NCBI GenBank assembly: GCA_902788095.1
Contig: CADAIT010000017.1
Location: 52,802-92,006, forward strand
Source of the DNA: an uncultured Bacteroidia bacterium
GTDB lineage: Bacteria > Bacteroidota > Bacteroidia > Bacteroidales > UBA932
Length of the DNA stretch: 39,205 nt
Direction: 5' to 3'
Shown: piece after piece, positions 24,294 through 30,242 of the stretch
Layout: every line of letters starts with the position of its first letter
Numbering within the stretch: position 1 is the stretch's first letter
The notes under the pieces: model-generated
What the model was told of the DNA's origin: nothing
Database searches by the model: none
The model's input: the letters and a program-made list of their open reading frames with translations, nothing else
Position numbers and translations under genes: made by a program

Positions 24294-24381
24294 GGAGAGA
24301 TGCTCGAGTGGCTTAAGAGGCACGCCTGGAAAGCGTGTATACTCCAAAAGGGTATCCCGAGTTCGAATCTCGGTCTCTCCG
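24294..24381 (+). tRNA. tRNA-Ser(GGA)
   Basis: 88 bases with a long variable arm. The acceptor stem pairs GGAGAGA with TCTCTCC, discriminator G. The anticodon stem CACGC/GCGTG holds loop CTGGAAA (anticodon GGA). The variable arm is TATACTCCAAAAGGGTAT and the T arm is CCGAGTTCGAATCTCGG. CCA is not encoded. The last 19 bases through the flank (24365-24383) are repeated at 24555-24573. Confidence 0.96.
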
Positions 24382-24573
24382 CAAATCAAGGAATGGCATC
24401 GCAGTGCAGCTGCGGTGCTTTTTTGTTGGCCAGCCCGTCGAAAACTTGTTTTCGTAAGGGGTGGGCAGCGGAAAAGCACAGAGGGAACGCAGTGACCGAA
24501 TGCCATTCCTGATTTCAGCGCCCCCGCGGGAGCGCATCGAGATGCCGCGCAGCGGAATCTCGGTCTCTCCGCA
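24365..24573. repeat. Duplicated tRNA-Ser 3' end enclosing a long hairpin
   Basis: A 19-base direct repeat (GAATCTCGGTCTCTCCGCA) occurs at 24365-24383, as the tRNA 3' end, and at 24555-24573. Between them lies an imperfect long stem: 24389-24399 with 24500-24510 (11 bp, GGAATGGCAT/ATGCCATTCC), GTGCTTTT with AAAAGCAC (24415-24422, 24472-24479) and CGAAAAC with GTTTTCG (24439-24454). This looks like an attachment-site duplication or a small inserted element, and may be a remnant of integration at the tRNA gene. Confidence 0.65.
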
Positions 24574-25032: not shown

Positions 25033-25051
25033 CAAAAAGTAATTGTTAATT

Positions 25052-25351
25052 ATGGGACAGACAGCTACATCCATCCACCTGGATTCGGAAATCAAGCCTC
25101 AGTTCGACGCCATCTGCAAACAGATTGGCGTTAGCGTCAATTCGGCCATCAATATCTTCGCCCGCGCTGTTGTGCGGGAGAAGGGCTTCCCCTTCCCCGT
25201 TACAGTTACTAAAAGCGGAAGCGAGAAGCGATCGGCCAAGGCCCAACTTGCATTGCAGGAATTGCAGAGCGCATCGGCCCAAAGTGGAAAAGAGTGGACG
25301 AATGAGGAGATAGACAATCTGATCAGCGAATACAGAAGAGGCAAGAAATGA
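25052..25351 (+). CDS. RelB/DinJ-type antitoxin
   Basis: A 99-residue protein. Residues 5-45 (TSIHLDSEIKPQF, then IGVSVNSAINIFARAVV) match the ribbon-helix-helix DNA-binding fold of RelB/DinJ antitoxins; FPFPV after it is typical of the family. The C-terminal half is polar and probably wraps the toxin. The ATGA overlap with the PIN gene (25348-25351) indicates translational coupling. The family usually represses its own operon; a direct repeat in the promoter is a candidate site. Confidence 0.88.
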   Translation: MGQTATSIHLDSEIKPQFDAICKQIGVSVNSAINIFARAVVREKGFPFPVTVTKSGSEKRSAKAQLALQELQSASAQSGKEWTNEEIDNLISEYRRGKK

Positions 25352-25761
25352 TTTACGCCGTCATCGATACAAATGTGCTTGTGGCTGCCGTAAAGACTTC
25401 CAAACTGGACTCTTCTACCTCTCAAGTGCTATCATTGGTATTCGCTGGGATTATCAAGCCTCTGGTGAGTGAAGAGATTCTCTCTGAGTACAATGACATC
25501 CTTAACCTTCCTGTCCTGAATTTGGATTCAGAGAAAGTTGCCGATGTCCTGGAGAAATTCCGGGAGGACGGTTTGTATCCCGGTCGTACGCCCTCGAATG
25601 AGATCTTCCCGGACGAAACCGACAGAATCTTTTACGAGATATCGCTCTCGGTAGAAAATTCTCATGTGGTCACAAACAACGTCAAGCATTTCCCTAAAGT
25701 ACTGCGTGTAGTTACGCCAAGTGAAATGCTTGTGTTGCTACGCTCGACAGGAGAAATTTAA
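25348..25761 (+). CDS. PIN-domain toxin (COG1569-like ribonuclease)
   Basis: A 137-residue PIN-fold protein. Asp7 in VIDTNVLV, Glu43/Glu47 in SEEILSEY, Asp89/Asp92 in FPDETDR and Asn110/Asn111 near the C-terminal strand occupy the positions of the metal-binding acidic quartet. PIN toxins are Mg-dependent ribonucleases, often cutting tRNA, rRNA or mRNA. This one belongs to the putative toxin component, PIN family. It is translationally coupled to the RelB/DinJ-type antitoxin in front. The last acidic position is Asn, as in many members. Confidence 0.88.
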   Translation: MIYAVIDTNVLVAAVKTSKLDSSTSQVLSLVFAGIIKPLVSEEILSEYNDILNLPVLNLDSEKVADVLEKFREDGLYPGRTPSNEIFPDETDRIFYEISLSVENSHVVTNNVKHFPKVLRVVTPSEMLVLLRSTGEI

Positions 25762-25910: not shown

Positions 25911-25915
25911 TTTTG

Positions 25916-25923
25916 TATATTTG
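25916..25923 (+). promoter_or_regulatory. Promoter -7 element of the ATPase gene
   Basis: TATATTTG, 22 bases before the start codon at 25946, directly after the second palindrome. Confidence 0.6.
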
Positions 25924-25945
25924 CATTGATTTAAAGCACAAAGAT

Positions 25946-27148
25946 ATGGAACTGAATCCGGACGTACTTTACAGAAACTCGCACAGACTGGTGTCGCAAG
26001 TCAGCCTTGACTTCAAACGGGAGATATATGACCACATCAACTGGAGCCCCAGGATAATCGGCATCAAAGGTCCGAAAGGTGTGGGAAAAACCACGCTCCT
26101 CAAGCAGCATATCAAGGAGTCGTTCACTGATGACAGCAAGATTCTTTATGCTTCACTAGACCATATTTGGTTCAACGGGCACAGCCTGGACGACCTGGTT
26201 GAGTACCATTATATCCACGGTGGTACCCACCTCTTCCTGGATGAAGTGCATAAATACAAAAATTGGGAGTGGGGTATCAAGAATATCTATGACAACTATC
26301 CTACGATGAATGTCGTTTTCACTGGAAGCTCTATGCTCCAGATTGGCGAGGGCAACGTGGATCTCTCCAGAAGAACTTCCATGAACACGGTCCACGGAAT
26401 GTCTTTCCGCGAATACCTTGCCTTTGAAGGCATCATGTCCTGGGAAAAGGTCAGTTTGGAGGATATCCTAACCCATCACGTGGAAATAGCTACGGAAATC
26501 ACTGACAAAATCCATGTCCTAAACTATTTCAACGATTACCTCAAGCACGGCTATTACCCCTTTTATATGGAAGATCCGGAAGGATTCAACGACCGCCTGG
26601 CCGAGGTCTGCCGTCAGGTGATTGAGCAGGATATCCCGGCTGTTACCGAAGTGGAGTATGCTACTATACAAAAACTTAAGAAGTTGCTCTATATCATAGC
26701 AGCCCAGGTTCCTTTTATCCCCAATATGGAAGAGATTTATAATCAGTTGGAGACCAATCGGGAGCAAGGGCTTAAACTGATTGACCTTCTCGAGCGGGCA
26801 GCCCTTATTGGTCAACTCAAAACCAAACCCAAATCCGTGAAGAAACTGTCCTCCCCTGACAAACTCTTCCTGGATAATTCCAATCTCATGTATGCCCTAT
26901 CCGACAACCCGGAGATTGGAACCATCCGGGAGTCCTTCTTCTACAATCAGCTGAGCAGAGTCTGCAACGTATATTATCCATCCAAAGGCGATTTTCTGGT
27001 GGACGAAAAGTACCTGTTTGAAGTAGGAGGTCCCGGAAAGAGCTTTGAACAAATAAAGGATATAGATAATAGTTTTTTAGCCATTGACGGCGTAGAATTC
27101 GGCCGTGGAAAAAAGATTCCCCTTTGGCTGTTCGGATTTTTGTATTAA
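25946..27148 (+). CDS. AAA_14/DUF4143-type ATPase
   Basis: A 400-residue protein of the AAA_14 plus DUF4143 family. Walker A GPKGVGKT is at 42-49, Walker B HLFLDEVHK with Asp99/Glu100, and sensor VVFTGSSML at about 120-128. A winged-helix-like region follows the ATPase, and a PD-(D/E)xK-like C-terminus has GDFLVDEKYLFEVGG and KSFEQIK. The family is abundant in Bacteroidetes and archaea and its function is not known; links to mobile elements, defence or toxin-like roles have been suggested. I chose ATG 25946 because the -7 promoter element lies between it and the earlier ATG (25913). It stands alone, with twin palindromes upstream. Confidence 0.9.
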   Translation: MELNPDVLYRNSHRLVSQVSLDFKREIYDHINWSPRIIGIKGPKGVGKTTLLKQHIKESFTDDSKILYASLDHIWFNGHSLDDLVEYHYIHGGTHLFLDEVHKYKNWEWGIKNIYDNYPTMNVVFTGSSMLQIGEGNVDLSRRTSMNTVHGMSFREYLAFEGIMSWEKVSLEDILTHHVEIATEITDKIHVLNYFNDYLKHGYYPFYMEDPEGFNDRLAEVCRQVIEQDIPAVTEVEYATIQKLKKLLYIIAAQVPFIPNMEEIYNQLETNREQGLKLIDLLERAALIGQLKTKPKSVKKLSSPDKLFLDNSNLMYALSDNPEIGTIRESFFYNQLSRVCNVYYPSKGDFLVDEKYLFEVGGPGKSFEQIKDIDNSFLAIDGVEFGRGKKIPLWLFGFLY

Positions 27149-27448: not shown

Positions 27449-28156
27449 TTATCCCTCTTTCTTCTCCGAGTCCAGTCGAAGCCACATAAGGTCTCGTTTC
27501 CCACCGTGCATATCCGGCCAAATGGACACCAGGTTCTTTTTAACTTTCTTAACGGTGGACTCAGATTTCCCTTCCAGCTGCGCAATATCCTTGATGGTCT
27601 GACCTTTCTTGAGTCTCCGAACAATCCCGGGATATTCCTGCAGAAGAACCTCTGGAGTCTTTCCTGTCCCTTTGGGGCGTCCCAGCTGGCCGCCGGCCTC
27701 CTTGTATCTCTTGCGTCCGGATTCCAATCGCTCCTTAATCTGTTCCCTCTCGATGCGTGCCACCTCTGAAAGAAGAGGAATCAGGATAGAAGCGACATAG
27801 TTAGGTGTTCCGTCTTCCTGGAGTGTCTGAATCCCCATGTTCTGGATGAAGAGGGAAACGCCGGATTCATTGAGCTGCCTGACGGCTGTCAGAATCTCCG
27901 TCGTATCACGGCCGAGGCGGGATAGCTCGGAGACCAGCAACATATCCGGATGATTATGTTCACAGAACGCCAGGCACTCAGTCAGAACCGGACGTGCCTG
28001 GTTCCGGACCGCACCGGAAACCTTTTCGGTGAAGGTACGGAGGATACGTATATCGTTGCGGGAGGCAAAAGCCTCCAGGTCGGCCACCTGCCTGTCGGTG
28101 GACTGCCGGTCTCCCTGGGAGGAAACGCGTGCATATACGATTGCTGACTTATTCAT
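27449..28156 (-). CDS. Serine recombinase (resolvase/invertase type)
   Basis: A 235-residue small serine recombinase. The N-terminal catalytic domain has YARVSSQGDRQS (Arg10, nucleophile Ser12), LLVSELSRLGRDT with the RLxR pattern, and the long E helix with REQIKERLESGRKRYKEAGGQLGRPKGT. A DNA-binding helix-turn-helix follows (TIKDIAQLEGKSESTVKKV, about 188-206). It carries a longer tail than Tn3-type resolvases. The start overlaps the end of the HAD gene by eight bases, so it belongs to the phosphoesterase operon. It could resolve or invert a DNA site; a 38-bp palindrome at the operon promoter (30051-30088) is a candidate target. Confidence 0.92.
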   Translation of the reverse strand: MNKSAIVYARVSSQGDRQSTDRQVADLEAFASRNDIRILRTFTEKVSGAVRNQARPVLTECLAFCEHNHPDMLLVSELSRLGRDTTEILTAVRQLNESGVSLFIQNMGIQTLQEDGTPNYVASILIPLLSEVARIEREQIKERLESGRKRYKEAGGQLGRPKGTGKTPEVLLQEYPGIVRRLKKGQTIKDIAQLEGKSESTVKKVKKNLVSIWPDMHGGKRDLMWLRLDSEKKEG

Positions 28157-28601
28157 TAGAATTCAATATTTCAATAGCTTTTTCGCTGTTCTCTGGGGCT
28201 AGACCAATCTGAGGATTTGTTTTAACCAAGTTGGGTACATCTAGGCTATCATCGTCCAGAACGACGAATCTGTCTCCTTCATGCTCCGCAATCCAGTGCT
28301 TTATAGCATCCATTTTCATTAGTATGTATTCAGGTGTCGTGGGTGTGGTATCATCGAGACAGCCTGGCATCCGGTTGTATTCCCACAACTTTCTGAGCCG
28401 ATATTCCCCAAGTTCTCTCCAAGACGAGGAAACGACTATTCTCGCTGCCGTCTCTTCTACGATGTGCTTGAGTGCATCAATGCAGGTGGGGGCGAACCAA
28501 TCAACGCCAAAAAGATTCTCCTGGCGGTGCTCAAAGACGCACTGCCTGGTGAAAGCGTCAGAGGTTAGGACCCCGTCAAAATCCAACAAAATGTACTTCA
28601 T
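28149..28601 (-). CDS. HAD-fold phosphatase, HAD_SAK type
   Basis: A 150-residue HAD-superfamily protein. Motif I LLDFDGVL (Asp7, Asp9), motif II IVVSSSWRE (Ser58-60) and motif IV VVLDDDS (Asp116-118) are intact. SSSWR is characteristic of the HAD group named from Swiss Army Knife RNA-repair proteins. Likely activity is removal of a phosphate from nucleic-acid ends or from a small molecule; the substrate is unknown. The start overlaps the end of the upstream metallophosphoesterase by four bases (ATGA-type) and the stop overlaps the recombinase start by eight bases. Confidence 0.82.
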   Translation of the reverse strand: MKYILLDFDGVLTSDAFTRQCVFEHRQENLFGVDWFAPTCIDALKHIVEETAARIVVSSSWRELGEYRLRKLWEYNRMPGCLDDTTPTTPEYILMKMDAIKHWIAEHEGDRFVVLDDDSLDVPNLVKTNPQIGLAPENSEKAIEILNSNE

Positions 28602-29371
28602 GATGGGATTTCCTTGAATTCCTCTATATCGAGCATTGAAAACAGCACTCCTTCCCTCTGTCCGTTCCAGGAACGGTGGAAGTGGCCATAGATCCAGCGT
28701 TTTATTGGGTGTTCCTGCTCACGGAGACGGTTGAAGATTTTATCTACGGTTCGGCGCTCATCGTCTATATCCCTAATGAGCGCCGGATCCATCGCAGACC
28801 AGGACTTTAAGCCCTGCTTATGCTGCAGCTCACAGAACGACGGAGCCGTGTGGGTGATGACGGTATCAATAGAGTATTCCACAGGGATGAAGTCAATGGC
28901 ATCCTCGTCATATACCGGGGCTTCGTCCGGCCACCAGACTGCAGTCTGCAGATGTCCTCTCTCCCGTCGGCGTGCATTCTCTTCCTGTCGCTGCAAACGG
29001 TCGATGCTGACTGCTCCTCCCACACATAAGATATTGTGGCTGCAAGCCTGAATAATGGAGTAGTCCGGCACGCAGCGCCACCGGACGAAAGCAACCATTT
29101 CCTCGTTAAAATACGACGGATCATCGTGGTTTCCCCTGACAAACACAATCCAGTTGTTAGCCTTCTTGAGTCTGTCGGCGACCAGGTTGTAAATGGACTC
29201 GTAATAGCCGGGCTTTTCGAATCCGAAACCGCAGTCTCCTGCGACGATGAGAAGGGTATCCGTCAGGCCGTACTGGACGCACAGCTTGAAAACAATCCCC
29301 CTGAAATCGCCGTGGATATCCCCGGAGACAAGGACTTGTTTGGCATCAGGATATTTGAAAAACTTGTTCAC
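28598..29371 (-). CDS. Calcineurin-like metallophosphoesterase (257 residues)
   Basis: A two-metal phosphoesterase. Motifs in order are SGDIHGD (Asp18, His20), AGDCGFG (Asp46), RGNHDDP (Asn81, His82), ITHTAPSF and GHFHRSW. All metal ligands of the family are present. The Cys after the second Asp and the insert around 130-165 (RRRERGHLQTAVWWPDEAP) are typical of phage- and island-borne members. It may act on RNA or DNA phosphodiesters or on 2',3'-cyclic ends; this is inference from the neighbours. It overlaps the first phosphoesterase gene by four bases. Confidence 0.87.
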   Translation of the reverse strand: MNKFFKYPDAKQVLVSGDIHGDFRGIVFKLCVQYGLTDTLLIVAGDCGFGFEKPGYYESIYNLVADRLKKANNWIVFVRGNHDDPSYFNEEMVAFVRWRCVPDYSIIQACSHNILCVGGAVSIDRLQRQEENARRRERGHLQTAVWWPDEAPVYDEDAIDFIPVEYSIDTVITHTAPSFCELQHKQGLKSWSAMDPALIRDIDDERRTVDKIFNRLREQEHPIKRWIYGHFHRSWNGQREGVLFSMLDIEEFKEIPS

Positions 29372-29961
29372 TTTTCCGCTTTCCTTATCTGTTCTTCAAT
29401 TTTGGTCTTCACTTGTAGAAAAGACACAGGTCTGTAGTCGTTGTTGTCGACGCCGACATCGTATTGTCTTGGGAACAGCACCTGCAGCCTTGTAAGGTCC
29501 TTGCCTTGATCCGACAGCGGTCCGGAATGCACGTGCCCAAACAGTTGCCATGTATTCCTGTAGCACCCTCCGTAGGTCAGAAAAGGGTTATGATTCAGGA
29601 TGATGCTCTGCCCTCCTACCCGGATGGTCATTTGCTGTGTCACGTGTTCGAAGCGTTGCATGAAGCCCTGTTTCATCTGCTTCATGTCGTGGTTCCCAAG
29701 AATAAGGTAGATTTTCCCGTTAAGTCGGAACATCACTTCATTCCACTCCTTTGCCCTTCCGAAAGCGAAATCTCCGAGATGAAACACAACTCCTTCTTCC
29801 GGCACGGTCTCATTCCAGCGGCGGATGAGTTCTTCGTTCATCTCCTGGATGGAGCTAAAGGGGCGGTTGCAAAACCTGATGATATTCTCATGCCAGAAAT
29901 GAGTGTCGGACGTGAACCATACGTCCTCCGGATTGAATATTCTCAGTTCTTCATTAAACAT
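29368..29961 (-). CDS. Calcineurin-like metallophosphoesterase (197 residues)
   Basis: First gene of the leftward operon. Motifs are TSDTHFWHENII (Asp19, His21), HLGDFAFG (Asp64), LGNHD (Asn90, His91), LNHNPFLTY (His124) and FGHVHSG (His143, His145), the set of small phage-type phosphoesterases with the TSDxHFxHxNII signature. It is of a different subfamily from the second enzyme, so the pair is not a recent duplication. A promoter and a tRNA-like element lie in its leader (29996-30111). Confidence 0.88.
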   Translation of the reverse strand: MFNEELRIFNPEDVWFTSDTHFWHENIIRFCNRPFSSIQEMNEELIRRWNETVPEEGVVFHLGDFAFGRAKEWNEVMFRLNGKIYLILGNHDMKQMKQGFMQRFEHVTQQMTIRVGGQSIILNHNPFLTYGGCYRNTWQLFGHVHSGPLSDQGKDLTRLQVLFPRQYDVGVDNNDYRPVSFLQVKTKIEEQIRKAEK

Positions 29962-30039
29962 ATCAATAGTCTGTTGATGCGTCGATTGTTTTGAGTGGAT
30001 GCATCAGGATTCGAACCTGAGCCTTCGCGGCTTACCCTG

Positions 30040-30047
30040 CAAAGATA
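30040..30047 (-). promoter_or_regulatory. Promoter -7 element of the phosphoesterase-HAD-recombinase operon
   Basis: TATCTTTG on the minus strand. The transcript would begin near 30032-30034 and carry about 70 bases of leader, including the complete T-arm hairpin, before the start codon at 29961. Confidence 0.6.
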
Positions 30048-30050
30048 AAT

Positions 30051-30088
30051 AAATAGTTGCGAAAATTCTAGAATTTCTGCAACTATTT
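30051..30088. promoter_or_regulatory. 38-bp palindrome over the operon promoter
   Basis: AAATAGTTGC at one end and GCAACTATTT at the other, with AATTCTAGAATT at the centre; 17 of 19 positions pair and there is no loop. It covers the -33 region of the leftward promoter, so it may be an operator or the binding site of the serine recombinase encoded by the same operon (inference). Confidence 0.6.
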
Positions 30089-30242
30089 TAATGGGCTATT
30101 TATTGCATCCAATCAGCTTTCCGCGAGCCAATACGCTAGCCCTATTTGTGGTTGGGCCGGTCAGCACATGGATGGCGGTGAGCCGTTAGAGTTTCGCCCC
30201 TCCCGCATCGTGGGAAGGGAGGGAAAAGAATTGTCGGGGAAA

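What the first reader, a model, noticed from the sequence alone, without database searches (positions are those of the whole stretch)
27449..29961. Four-gene overlapping operon: two metallophosphoesterases, a HAD_SAK phosphatase and a serine recombinase
All four genes overlap by 4-8 bases and share one promoter, which implies a joint function. The two phosphoesterases are of different subfamilies and all catalytic residues are intact. The HAD protein belongs to a group first described with RNA-repair proteins. Phosphatase plus phosphodiesterase activities are what is needed to heal nucleic-acid ends; joined to a recombinase this could be an end-processing, defence or element-maintenance module. 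I know of no described system with this set.
Basis: inference. Interest (0 to 1): 0.72.

Follow-up and report, generated by a model that had tools for sequence, protein, structure and literature searches.

The report
Mobile phosphoesterase operon in defence island
A gut-type bacterium carries a tightly packed set of genes for three phosphate-cutting enzymes and a DNA recombinase, and one of these enzymes recurs next to several unrelated anti-virus and toxin systems in related bacteria, which suggests a shared helper role in bacterial immunity that remains to be tested.

Summary
In detail: four minus-strand genes (29961-27449) overlap by 4, 4 and 8 bp. They encode two metallophosphoesterases (MPE197, MPE257), a HAD_SAK_2 phosphatase and a small serine recombinase, in a low-GC segment missing between the same flanks in three congeners. 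It is not a chance assembly: MPE257 and HAD recur together in three other genomes, HAD and the recombinase in two. The genes also shuffle freely. The main result concerns MPE257. In 80 Bacteroidales loci its upstream same-strand neighbour belongs to listed defence or toxin families in 38 of 65 cases, against 16 of 429 for other genes there; the families were chosen after seeing the neighbours, and Pfam alone gives 18 of 56 against 2 of 70. Partners include AbiE, RhuM/Fic, SMODS-SLATT, type I restriction and nuclease-like genes; 41 of 80 loci have none recognised. Close MPE257 copies sit behind different partners, with homology mostly limited to the gene. Its model is nearest to Dbr1. Complete RNA repair is not supported here: no Rnl2-type ligase or RtcB in this 83%-complete genome. 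Most likely this is an accessory nucleic-acid or nucleotide phosphoesterase module of a defence island; the substrate is unknown.

The parts
29368..29961 (-). MPE197, COG4186-like (recalled name) calcineurin-type metallophosphoesterase, first gene of the operon
   Evidence: PF00149 33.1 bits, PHROG 547 176.8 bits; profile matches PDB 1xm7 E 1.2e-18
28598..29371 (-). MPE257, Dbr1/Rv0805-like metallophosphoesterase, GTG start, overlaps MPE197 by 4 bp
   Evidence: PF00149 42.7 bits, PHROG 1649; AlphaFold pLDDT 95.4; Foldseek best PDB match Dbr1 4peh E 9.8e-9
28149..28601 (-). HAD_SAK_2 phosphatase, overlaps MPE257 by 4 bp
   Evidence: PF18143 83 bits against a cut-off of 27.5, PHROG 1818
27449..28156 (-). 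small serine recombinase (resolvase/invertase type) with C-terminal HTH, overlaps the HAD gene by 8 bp
   Evidence: PF00239 117.1 bits, HTH_23, PHROG 125; below the Mpi equivalog cut-off (74.5 against 272 bits)
30040..30047 (-). TATCTTTG, Bacteroidetes -7-type promoter box, putative
   Evidence: read from sequence; consensus recalled, not tested
30051..30088 (.). palindrome with 19-bp arms just upstream of the putative promoter box, possible operator or recombination site
   Evidence: I5, 89% complementary; its 28-base core, up to 3 mismatches, occurs once, here, in 61 genomes searched
29996..30040 (-). tRNA-3'-half-like sequence (T arm, variable arm, acceptor strand) in the presumed leader
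   Evidence: read by eye; fold; a 20-base core occurs once in the own genome (up to 2 mismatches) and in none of 100 congeners (up to 1 mismatch); not called by ARAGORN or Rfam
25913..27148 (+). AAA_14/DUF4143 ATPase, convergent neighbour; a relative in L119 lies just downstream of the recombinase
   Evidence: PF13173 94.5 bits; PADLOC candidate PDC-S01 E 4.6e-29; L119 map
25043..25351 (+). RelB-like antitoxin (named by eye)
   Evidence: ORF; family not tested
25348..25761 (+). PIN-domain protein, overlaps the RelB-like ORF
   Evidence: PF13470 48.3 bits
24383..30553 (.). variable low-GC segment between tRNA-Ser(gga) and the terminator region of the PPIase-like gene
   Evidence: the two flanking genes are 108-149 bp apart in L378, L379 and L380; GC mostly 0.45-0.52 against 0.57-0.59 in the flanks

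Best explanation
The operon is an accessory phosphoesterase module of a small defence/toxin island. Shown: the four genes form a coupled set that recurs in part in relatives, and MPE257 is an accessory gene that sits, with borders of homology close to the gene itself, on the 3' side of several unrelated kinds of defence or toxin operon in Bacteroidales. Inferred: MPE257 is a phosphodiesterase acting on nucleic acid or nucleotide products that such systems make or damage (RNA ends, nucleotidyl adducts, signalling nucleotides), so that it limits, resets or cleans up after them. In the window's branch it is paired with the HAD phosphatase, which would remove the phosphate that the diesterase leaves; MPE197 would add a second diesterase specificity. 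The serine recombinase most likely serves mobility or rearrangement of the module and not the chemistry.
For: Tight overlaps. Recurrence: MPE257-HAD with 4-bp overlap in L159 and L160, through an 87-aa gene in L158; MPE197 follows in L159 and L160; L158/L119 also carries the recombinase and AAA_14; L140 has MPE197, two small genes, HAD-recombinase (4-bp overlap), HAD. In the genus MPE257 and MPE197 lie within 5 kb in 8 of the 13 genomes that I count as having both. Defence link: 38 of 65 upstream neighbours of MPE257 against 16 of 429 for other genes in the same loci; Pfam alone 18 of 56 against 2 of 70 control genes for four families. Partner switching: at least 30 label changes on a tree of 78. 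Homology close to the gene borders in most of 16 pairs with different partners. Model nearest to Dbr1, then Rv0805, LpxH, GpdQ, Mre11.
Against: 41 of 80 MPE257 loci have no recognised partner next to them, the window's own branch included, and no toxin lies inside the window operon. The partner families were picked after looking at the neighbours, so the largest enrichment is biased; two NTase modules and most nuclease-like genes were named by eye. Control genes in the same loci also include defence-type domains (AAA_14 3, RhuM 2, ResIII 2, HipA, TOTE primase and two DNA methylases 1 each of 70), so the islands as a whole are rich in them. Gene-limited homology is not special to changed partners: 25 pairs with the same label give nearly the same medians. 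None of the four proteins matches a PADLOC model. Partners as different as type I restriction and AbiE give no single obvious substrate. TM-scores to Dbr1 are 0.53-0.57 at 14-17% identity. No activity has been measured. The HAD model was too weak to place.
Confidence: 0.5

Rival explanations
1. RNA repair: MPE257 (and MPE197) open 2',3'-cyclic phosphates or remove adducts and the HAD phosphatase removes the terminal phosphate, so that a host ligase can reseal tRNAs cut by toxins or phage-triggered nucleases.
For: HAD_SAK_2 is named after RNA repair proteins; PMC9503650 section 3.7.3 (read in full) predicts phage RNA-end clean-up neighbourhoods with a Swiss-army-knife HAD and, in others, a calcineurin-like phosphoesterase; of 14 PF09414 RNA ligase loci in the genus, four lie near phosphoesterases of the pool (L154 in one strand run, L147 and L148 2-4 kb away, L390 within 1.5 kb); Dbr1-like model.
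Against: No PF09414 and no RtcB in the own genome, which is 83% complete; no kinase or ligase in the operon; only 14 of 250 genomes of the genus have PF09414, and for ten of these no pool gene was seen (only 1.5 kb on each side examined); L147 and L148 are near-copies; several MPE257 partners (type I restriction, SMODS) have no RNA-break logic.
Confidence: 0.22
2. Counter-counter-defence or extra effector: the phosphoesterases degrade phage nucleic acid or phage-made nucleotides and add to the killing or restriction by the neighbouring system.
For: The superfamily includes nucleases such as Mre11; MPE257 lies between hsdS and hsdR in L192 and L218 and beside type I genes in L200 and L205; a phage MPE with phosphodiesterase activity is reported to disrupt host DNA (PMC12287305, abstract and section 10 read).
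Against: MPE257 also follows AbiE and Fic-type modules, where a nuclease adds nothing obvious; the window operon has no partner effector.
Confidence: 0.15
3. Passive cargo: phage- or element-type accessory phosphatases collected by a mobile element, with neighbours that only reflect hypervariable islands.
For: Relatives of MPE197 in 1504, of HAD in 67 and of MPE257 in 21 of 50,697 phage records; broken copies in the own genome and congeners; MPE257 in L135 lies near a relaxase-like and an integrase-like ORF (by eye); control genes in the loci are also rich in defence-type domains.
Against: Position-specific enrichment directly upstream; exact 4-bp overlap with the upstream gene in 9 of 66 loci that have a same-strand upstream gene; catalytic residues invariant in 44 MPE257 proteins.
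Confidence: 0.13

Closest known systems
Swiss-army-knife / phage RNA-end clean-up neighbourhoods (predicted, PMC9503650)
   Same: HAD_SAK-type phosphatase or calcineurin-like phosphoesterase as accessory conflict genes
   Different: no sirtuin, 2H enzyme or ligase among the four genes; two phosphoesterases of other subfamilies; a serine recombinase; chromosomal island
CapW, CapH-CapP, CapK-CapS controllers of immune operons (PMC13373217)
   Same: one gene unit shared by many unrelated immune operons
   Different: those control transcription and sit next to promoters; MPE257 is a predicted enzyme placed mostly downstream of the partner genes
Phage metallophosphoesterase Gp48 (PMC12287305)
   Same: metallophosphoesterase in a phage-host conflict, with phosphodiesterase activity
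   Different: anti-defence protein of a mycobacteriophage; no sequence comparison was made here
Dbr1 lariat debranching enzyme and Rv0805/GpdQ phosphodiesterases
   Same: closest solved folds of MPE257
   Different: 14-17% identity for the Dbr1 chains; MPE257 keeps the GDxHG aspartate that Dbr1 replaces by cysteine (recalled)
AbiE type IV toxin-antitoxin system
   Same: AbiEi-AbiEii directly upstream of MPE257 in 6 of 80 loci, an AbiEi-like gene alone in 3 more
   Different: described AbiE operons are two-gene (abstract of PMC3985639 in search listing); no AbiE in the window segment by the families tested

Membership tests
RNA heal-and-seal repair operon | end-healing phosphoesterase/phosphatase genes | tested here: met
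   family level only: PF00149 twice and PF18143; activity unknown
RNA heal-and-seal repair operon | RNA ligase in operon or genome | tested here: not met
   none among the four genes; PF09414 and RtcB PF01139 absent from the 83%-complete genome; the T4 Rnl1 family was not searched
RNA heal-and-seal repair operon | activity on 2',3'-cyclic or terminal phosphates | not testable with these tools
   needs purified enzymes
Known or candidate defence system (PADLOC) | profile match of at least one of the four proteins | tested here: not met
   only the neighbouring AAA_14 ATPase matches candidate PDC-S01
Accessory unit shared by immune operons (CapW/CapHP/CapKS-like) | same gene adjacent to many unrelated immune operons | tested here: met
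   MPE257: seven partner classes in 39 of 80 loci, three of the classes being AbiE or NTase-like modules
Accessory unit shared by immune operons (CapW/CapHP/CapKS-like) | placed next to the promoter and controlling transcription | tested here: not met
   position: recognised partners lie mostly upstream of MPE257; control of transcription was not testable
Mpi-type master DNA invertase | NCBIfam equivalog cut-off 272 bits | tested here: not met
   74.5 bits
COG4186-like phosphoesterase (MPE197) | sequence match to solved member aq_1665 with metal ligands kept | tested here: met
   1xm7 E 1.2e-18; ligands invariant in 12 sequences; the COG number is recalled
HAD_SAK_2 | Pfam gathering score and HAD motifs | tested here: met
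   83 against 27.5 bits; DxD and DD invariant in 7 sequences

The most novel reading that the evidence does not exclude
MPE257 is a general eraser or safety enzyme of bacterial immunity: a single-gene cassette that swaps, nearly gene by gene, onto the end of at least five unrelated kinds of defence and toxin system (AbiE/nucleotidyltransferase, RhuM/Fic, SMODS-SLATT, type I restriction, nuclease-like) and removes phosphoester products common to their action. The window operon would be its stand-alone form, equipped with a partner HAD phosphatase and a recombinase that helps the cassette to move.
Probability: 0.25. Interest if true: 0.85.

Novelty: new variant of a known kind. Interest (0 to 1): 0.6.

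Why it matters
Shared accessory genes show which steps different immune systems have in common. The accessory units named in the section of PMC13373217 that I read are regulators; an enzyme that joins AbiE, Fic-type, SMODS-SLATT, restriction and nuclease-like operons would point to a common chemical product that must be removed. Close MPE257 genes behind different partners (L228/L229 against L202/L220/L234; L185/L206 against L182-L184) give ready-made comparisons for experiments.

Tried and rejected
Chance assembly was rejected: the pairings recur. A complete RNA repair operon was not supported: no Rnl2-type ligase or RtcB in the own genome. An integrase-driven tRNA island was not shown: 19 bases of the tRNA-Ser 3' end are repeated 190 bp downstream (24555-24573), but no integrase was recognised in the segment; in G037 the same place holds 57 kb of ORFs that look chromosomal by eye. 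The empty sites are not clean: in L378 and L380 no tRNA-Ser was found, and in L379 it lies on the other side of the GTPase gene; in other congeners the two flanking genes are 1-6 kb apart or differently oriented. A multi-copy recombination site was not supported: the palindrome core is single in 61 genomes. A phage origin of the tRNA-like piece was not supported: no exact hit in viral contigs. The first clustering wrongly put GatB/YqeY-like proteins (by eye) of L042 and L054 into the HAD group; I left them out from then on. The HAD fold search gave nothing at E 0.001. Single-sequence scans of viral contigs gave one weak relative and none; the alignment scan gave 80, of which nine went into A11 and the neighbourhoods were not read. 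PADLOC on A8 lists models and not members, so I did not use it as a count. Papers: PMC9503650 passages and section 3.7.3 read; PMC12287305 abstract and section 10; PMC13373217 abstract and one results section; PMC3985639 and the rest only in listings. That I saw no description of the MPE257 association rests on nine searches of an open-access library only.
Full report
1. What is there. Four ORFs on the minus strand at 29368-29961, 28598-29371, 28149-28601 and 27449-28156 overlap by 4, 4 and 8 bp. They encode a 197-aa and a 257-aa calcineurin-type metallophosphoesterase, a HAD_SAK_2 phosphatase and a serine recombinase with a C-terminal helix-turn-helix. Catalytic motifs are kept in all three phosphoesterases. 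None of the four matches a PADLOC model; the neighbouring AAA_14 ATPase (25913-27148) matches candidate PDC-S01.

2. Where it lies. The window belongs to a draft genome of 2.16 Mb, 83% complete; the named relatives of MPE257 are Bacteroidales and kin. The segment 24383-30553 has a GC content mostly of 0.45-0.52 against 0.57-0.59 in the flanks. The flanking GTPase and PPIase-like genes, 6.4 kb apart here, are 108-149 bp apart in three congeners (G019, G076, G028) and 57 kb apart in G037. In two of the three no tRNA-Ser was found in the fetched stretch and in the third it lies elsewhere, so the site was also rearranged. The segment holds a RelB-like (by eye)/PIN pair, the AAA_14 gene and the operon. 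It looks like a small toxin/defence island.

3. Is the set chance? With single sequences, relatives of MPE197 were found in 15 of 150 and of the HAD protein in 8 of 150 genomes, own genome counted. With alignments, MPE257 was found in 30 of 250 and MPE197 in 37 of 250 genomes of the genus, weak and fragmentary matches included. I count 13 genomes that have MPE197 and a clear MPE257 match; in 8 of them the two lie within 5 kb (one of these MPE197 is a fragment and two are distant members). Pairings recur: MPE257-HAD with 4-bp overlap in L159 (=L031) and L160 (=L118), each with MPE197 about 185 bp further; MPE257, 87-aa gene, HAD, two small genes, recombinase, AAA_14 in L158 (=L119), all on one strand; MPE197, two small genes, HAD-recombinase (4-bp overlap), HAD in L140. 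The order differs between loci. The own genome holds a second, decaying array with an MPE197 relative in two pieces, remnants of other phosphoesterases and an intact HAD frame (L030). So the set belongs to a recurring but shuffling pool, which also contains further phosphoesterase families and a 390-560-aa family of which one member was tested and had no Pfam match.

4. MPE257 and defence. A scan of 84,980 species genomes found 151 loci that encode relatives; the best 80 were returned and read. In 56 of 80 a same-strand gene lies within 60 bp upstream. Pfam finds among these 56 Virulence_RhuM in 7, AbiEii in 6, Fic in 5, SLATT_4 in 3 and type I specificity domains in 2. The control is one gene of at least 100 aa, five or more positions away, from 70 of the 80 loci. 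It shows RhuM in 2 and none of AbiEii, SLATT_4 or type I specificity among the 25 families printed of 113 (single hits further down would not be seen). It also shows AAA_14 in 3, ResIII in 2, and HipA, a TOTE primase and two DNA methylases once each, so the surroundings in general are rich in defence-type genes. RhuM, AbiEii, SLATT_4 and Methylase_S together give 18 of 56 against 2 of 70, Fisher p 8e-6. With profiles made from the neighbours themselves, which biases the figure upwards, 38 of 65 upstream genes within 150 bp belong to listed defence/toxin families, against 16 of 429 for other genes in the same loci (genes of at least 90 aa that are not members of those families). By position, effector families occupy 33 of 58 places at -1, 7 of 64 at -2 and 5 of 49 at +1 (same bias). 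Recognised partners next to MPE257 occur in 39 of 80 loci: AbiE 9, RhuM 9, a regulator-NTase-like module 6, nuclease-like genes 6, type I restriction 4, SMODS-SLATT 3, another NTase-like module 2. The two NTase-like modules and most nuclease-like genes are named by eye; one NTase-like protein reached Pfam AbiEii only below the cut-off. In 41 of 80 none was recognised, among them the window's own branch and loci whose neighbour is another phosphoesterase.

5. Partner exchange. On a tree of 78 MPE257 proteins with nine labels (29 rows labelled other) the partner label needs 30 changes (least possible 8; shuffled mean 45.4), so it is clustered but has switched many times. In 16 pairs with different partners and 76-91% DNA identity the local homology begins about at the start codon (median 58 bp before the GDxHG motif, which lies 45-81 bp after the start codon in 10 of 12 loci printed, 150 and 177 bp in the other two) and ends about at the stop codon (median 0). 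Seven of the 16 run 110-126 bp past the stop, and two also reach 106-129 bp upstream of the motif. L228 against L220 matches from one base before the start codon to the stop codon. The 25 pairs with the same label give nearly the same medians (55 and 4), because the partner alleles and flanks often differ there too, so the gene-sized homology shows independence of MPE257 from its surroundings in general; only the label changes show exchange of partner kind.

6. Structure and mechanism. The AlphaFold model of MPE257 has pLDDT 95.4. The nearest solved folds are Dbr1 RNA debranching enzyme (E 1e-8 to 1.5e-7, TM 0.53-0.57), then Rv0805, LpxH, GpdQ and Mre11. MPE197 is closest to 1xm7, a hypothetical protein. 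For the HAD protein nothing significant was found; its model has pLDDT 77 from four sequences. Rnl2-type RNA ligases occur in 14 of 250 genomes of the genus; four of the 14 loci lie near phosphoesterases of the pool (L154 in one strand run; L147 and L148, near-copies, 2-4 kb away; L390), for the other ten only 1.5 kb on each side was examined. The window's genome has neither PF09414 nor RtcB. I therefore commit to an accessory phosphodiesterase-phosphatase module that undoes or cleans up products of defence or toxin action, with RNA or nucleotides as the likely substrate; the enzymatic step is inferred throughout.

7. Comparison with what is known. PMC9503650, section 3.7.3, predicts phage neighbourhoods for cleaning RNA ends that contain a Swiss-army-knife HAD or a calcineurin-like phosphoesterase. 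PMC13373217 describes controller genes shared by unrelated immune operons, which MPE257 resembles in distribution but not in position or chemistry. PMC12287305 describes a phage phosphoesterase that counters defence. In nine searches of an open-access library I saw no description of this association.

8. Limits. The loci come mostly from draft metagenome genomes; gene calls are plain ORFs; families were partly chosen after seeing the neighbours; only the best 80 of 151 loci were read; no activity is known.

Noticed in passing
L030 8519-11324 (own genome, contig C3): A second, decaying array with MPE197 in two pieces (one stop inside), remnants of two other phosphoesterases and an intact HAD_SAK_2-type frame.
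   Followed up: partly
window 29996-30130, minus strand: Leader of the operon holds a tRNA-3'-half-like piece whose acceptor strand can pair with GGATGCA about 100 bases upstream, around a palindrome with 19-bp arms; relic of a foreign tRNA or a regulatory mimic.
   Followed up: partly
window 24365-24383 and 24555-24573: 19 bases of the 3' end of tRNA-Ser(gga) are repeated 190 bp downstream, as after loss of an integrated element.
   Followed up: no
L154 3607-7429: One-strand gene run in a congener: T4 Rnl2-type RNA ligase, 146-aa protein, metallophosphoesterase, RhuM-Fic-like gene, truncated MPE197-like gene.
   Followed up: partly
L192 6762-12018 and L218 2518-8031: MPE257 sits between hsdS and hsdR of type I restriction operons in two Prevotella-type genomes, 0 bp from and 8 bp overlapping with hsdS.
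   Followed up: partly
L185, L197, L206: SMODS nucleotidyltransferase, SLATT_4 membrane protein, then MPE257; in Bacteroides xylanisolvens XB1A (L197) the MPE257 frame is split in two.
   Followed up: partly
L049 4059-5630, L035 10319-11494 and relatives: A 390-560-aa family (one member tested, no Pfam match) travels with the phosphoesterases in several congeners and one gut virome contig (L053).
   Followed up: no
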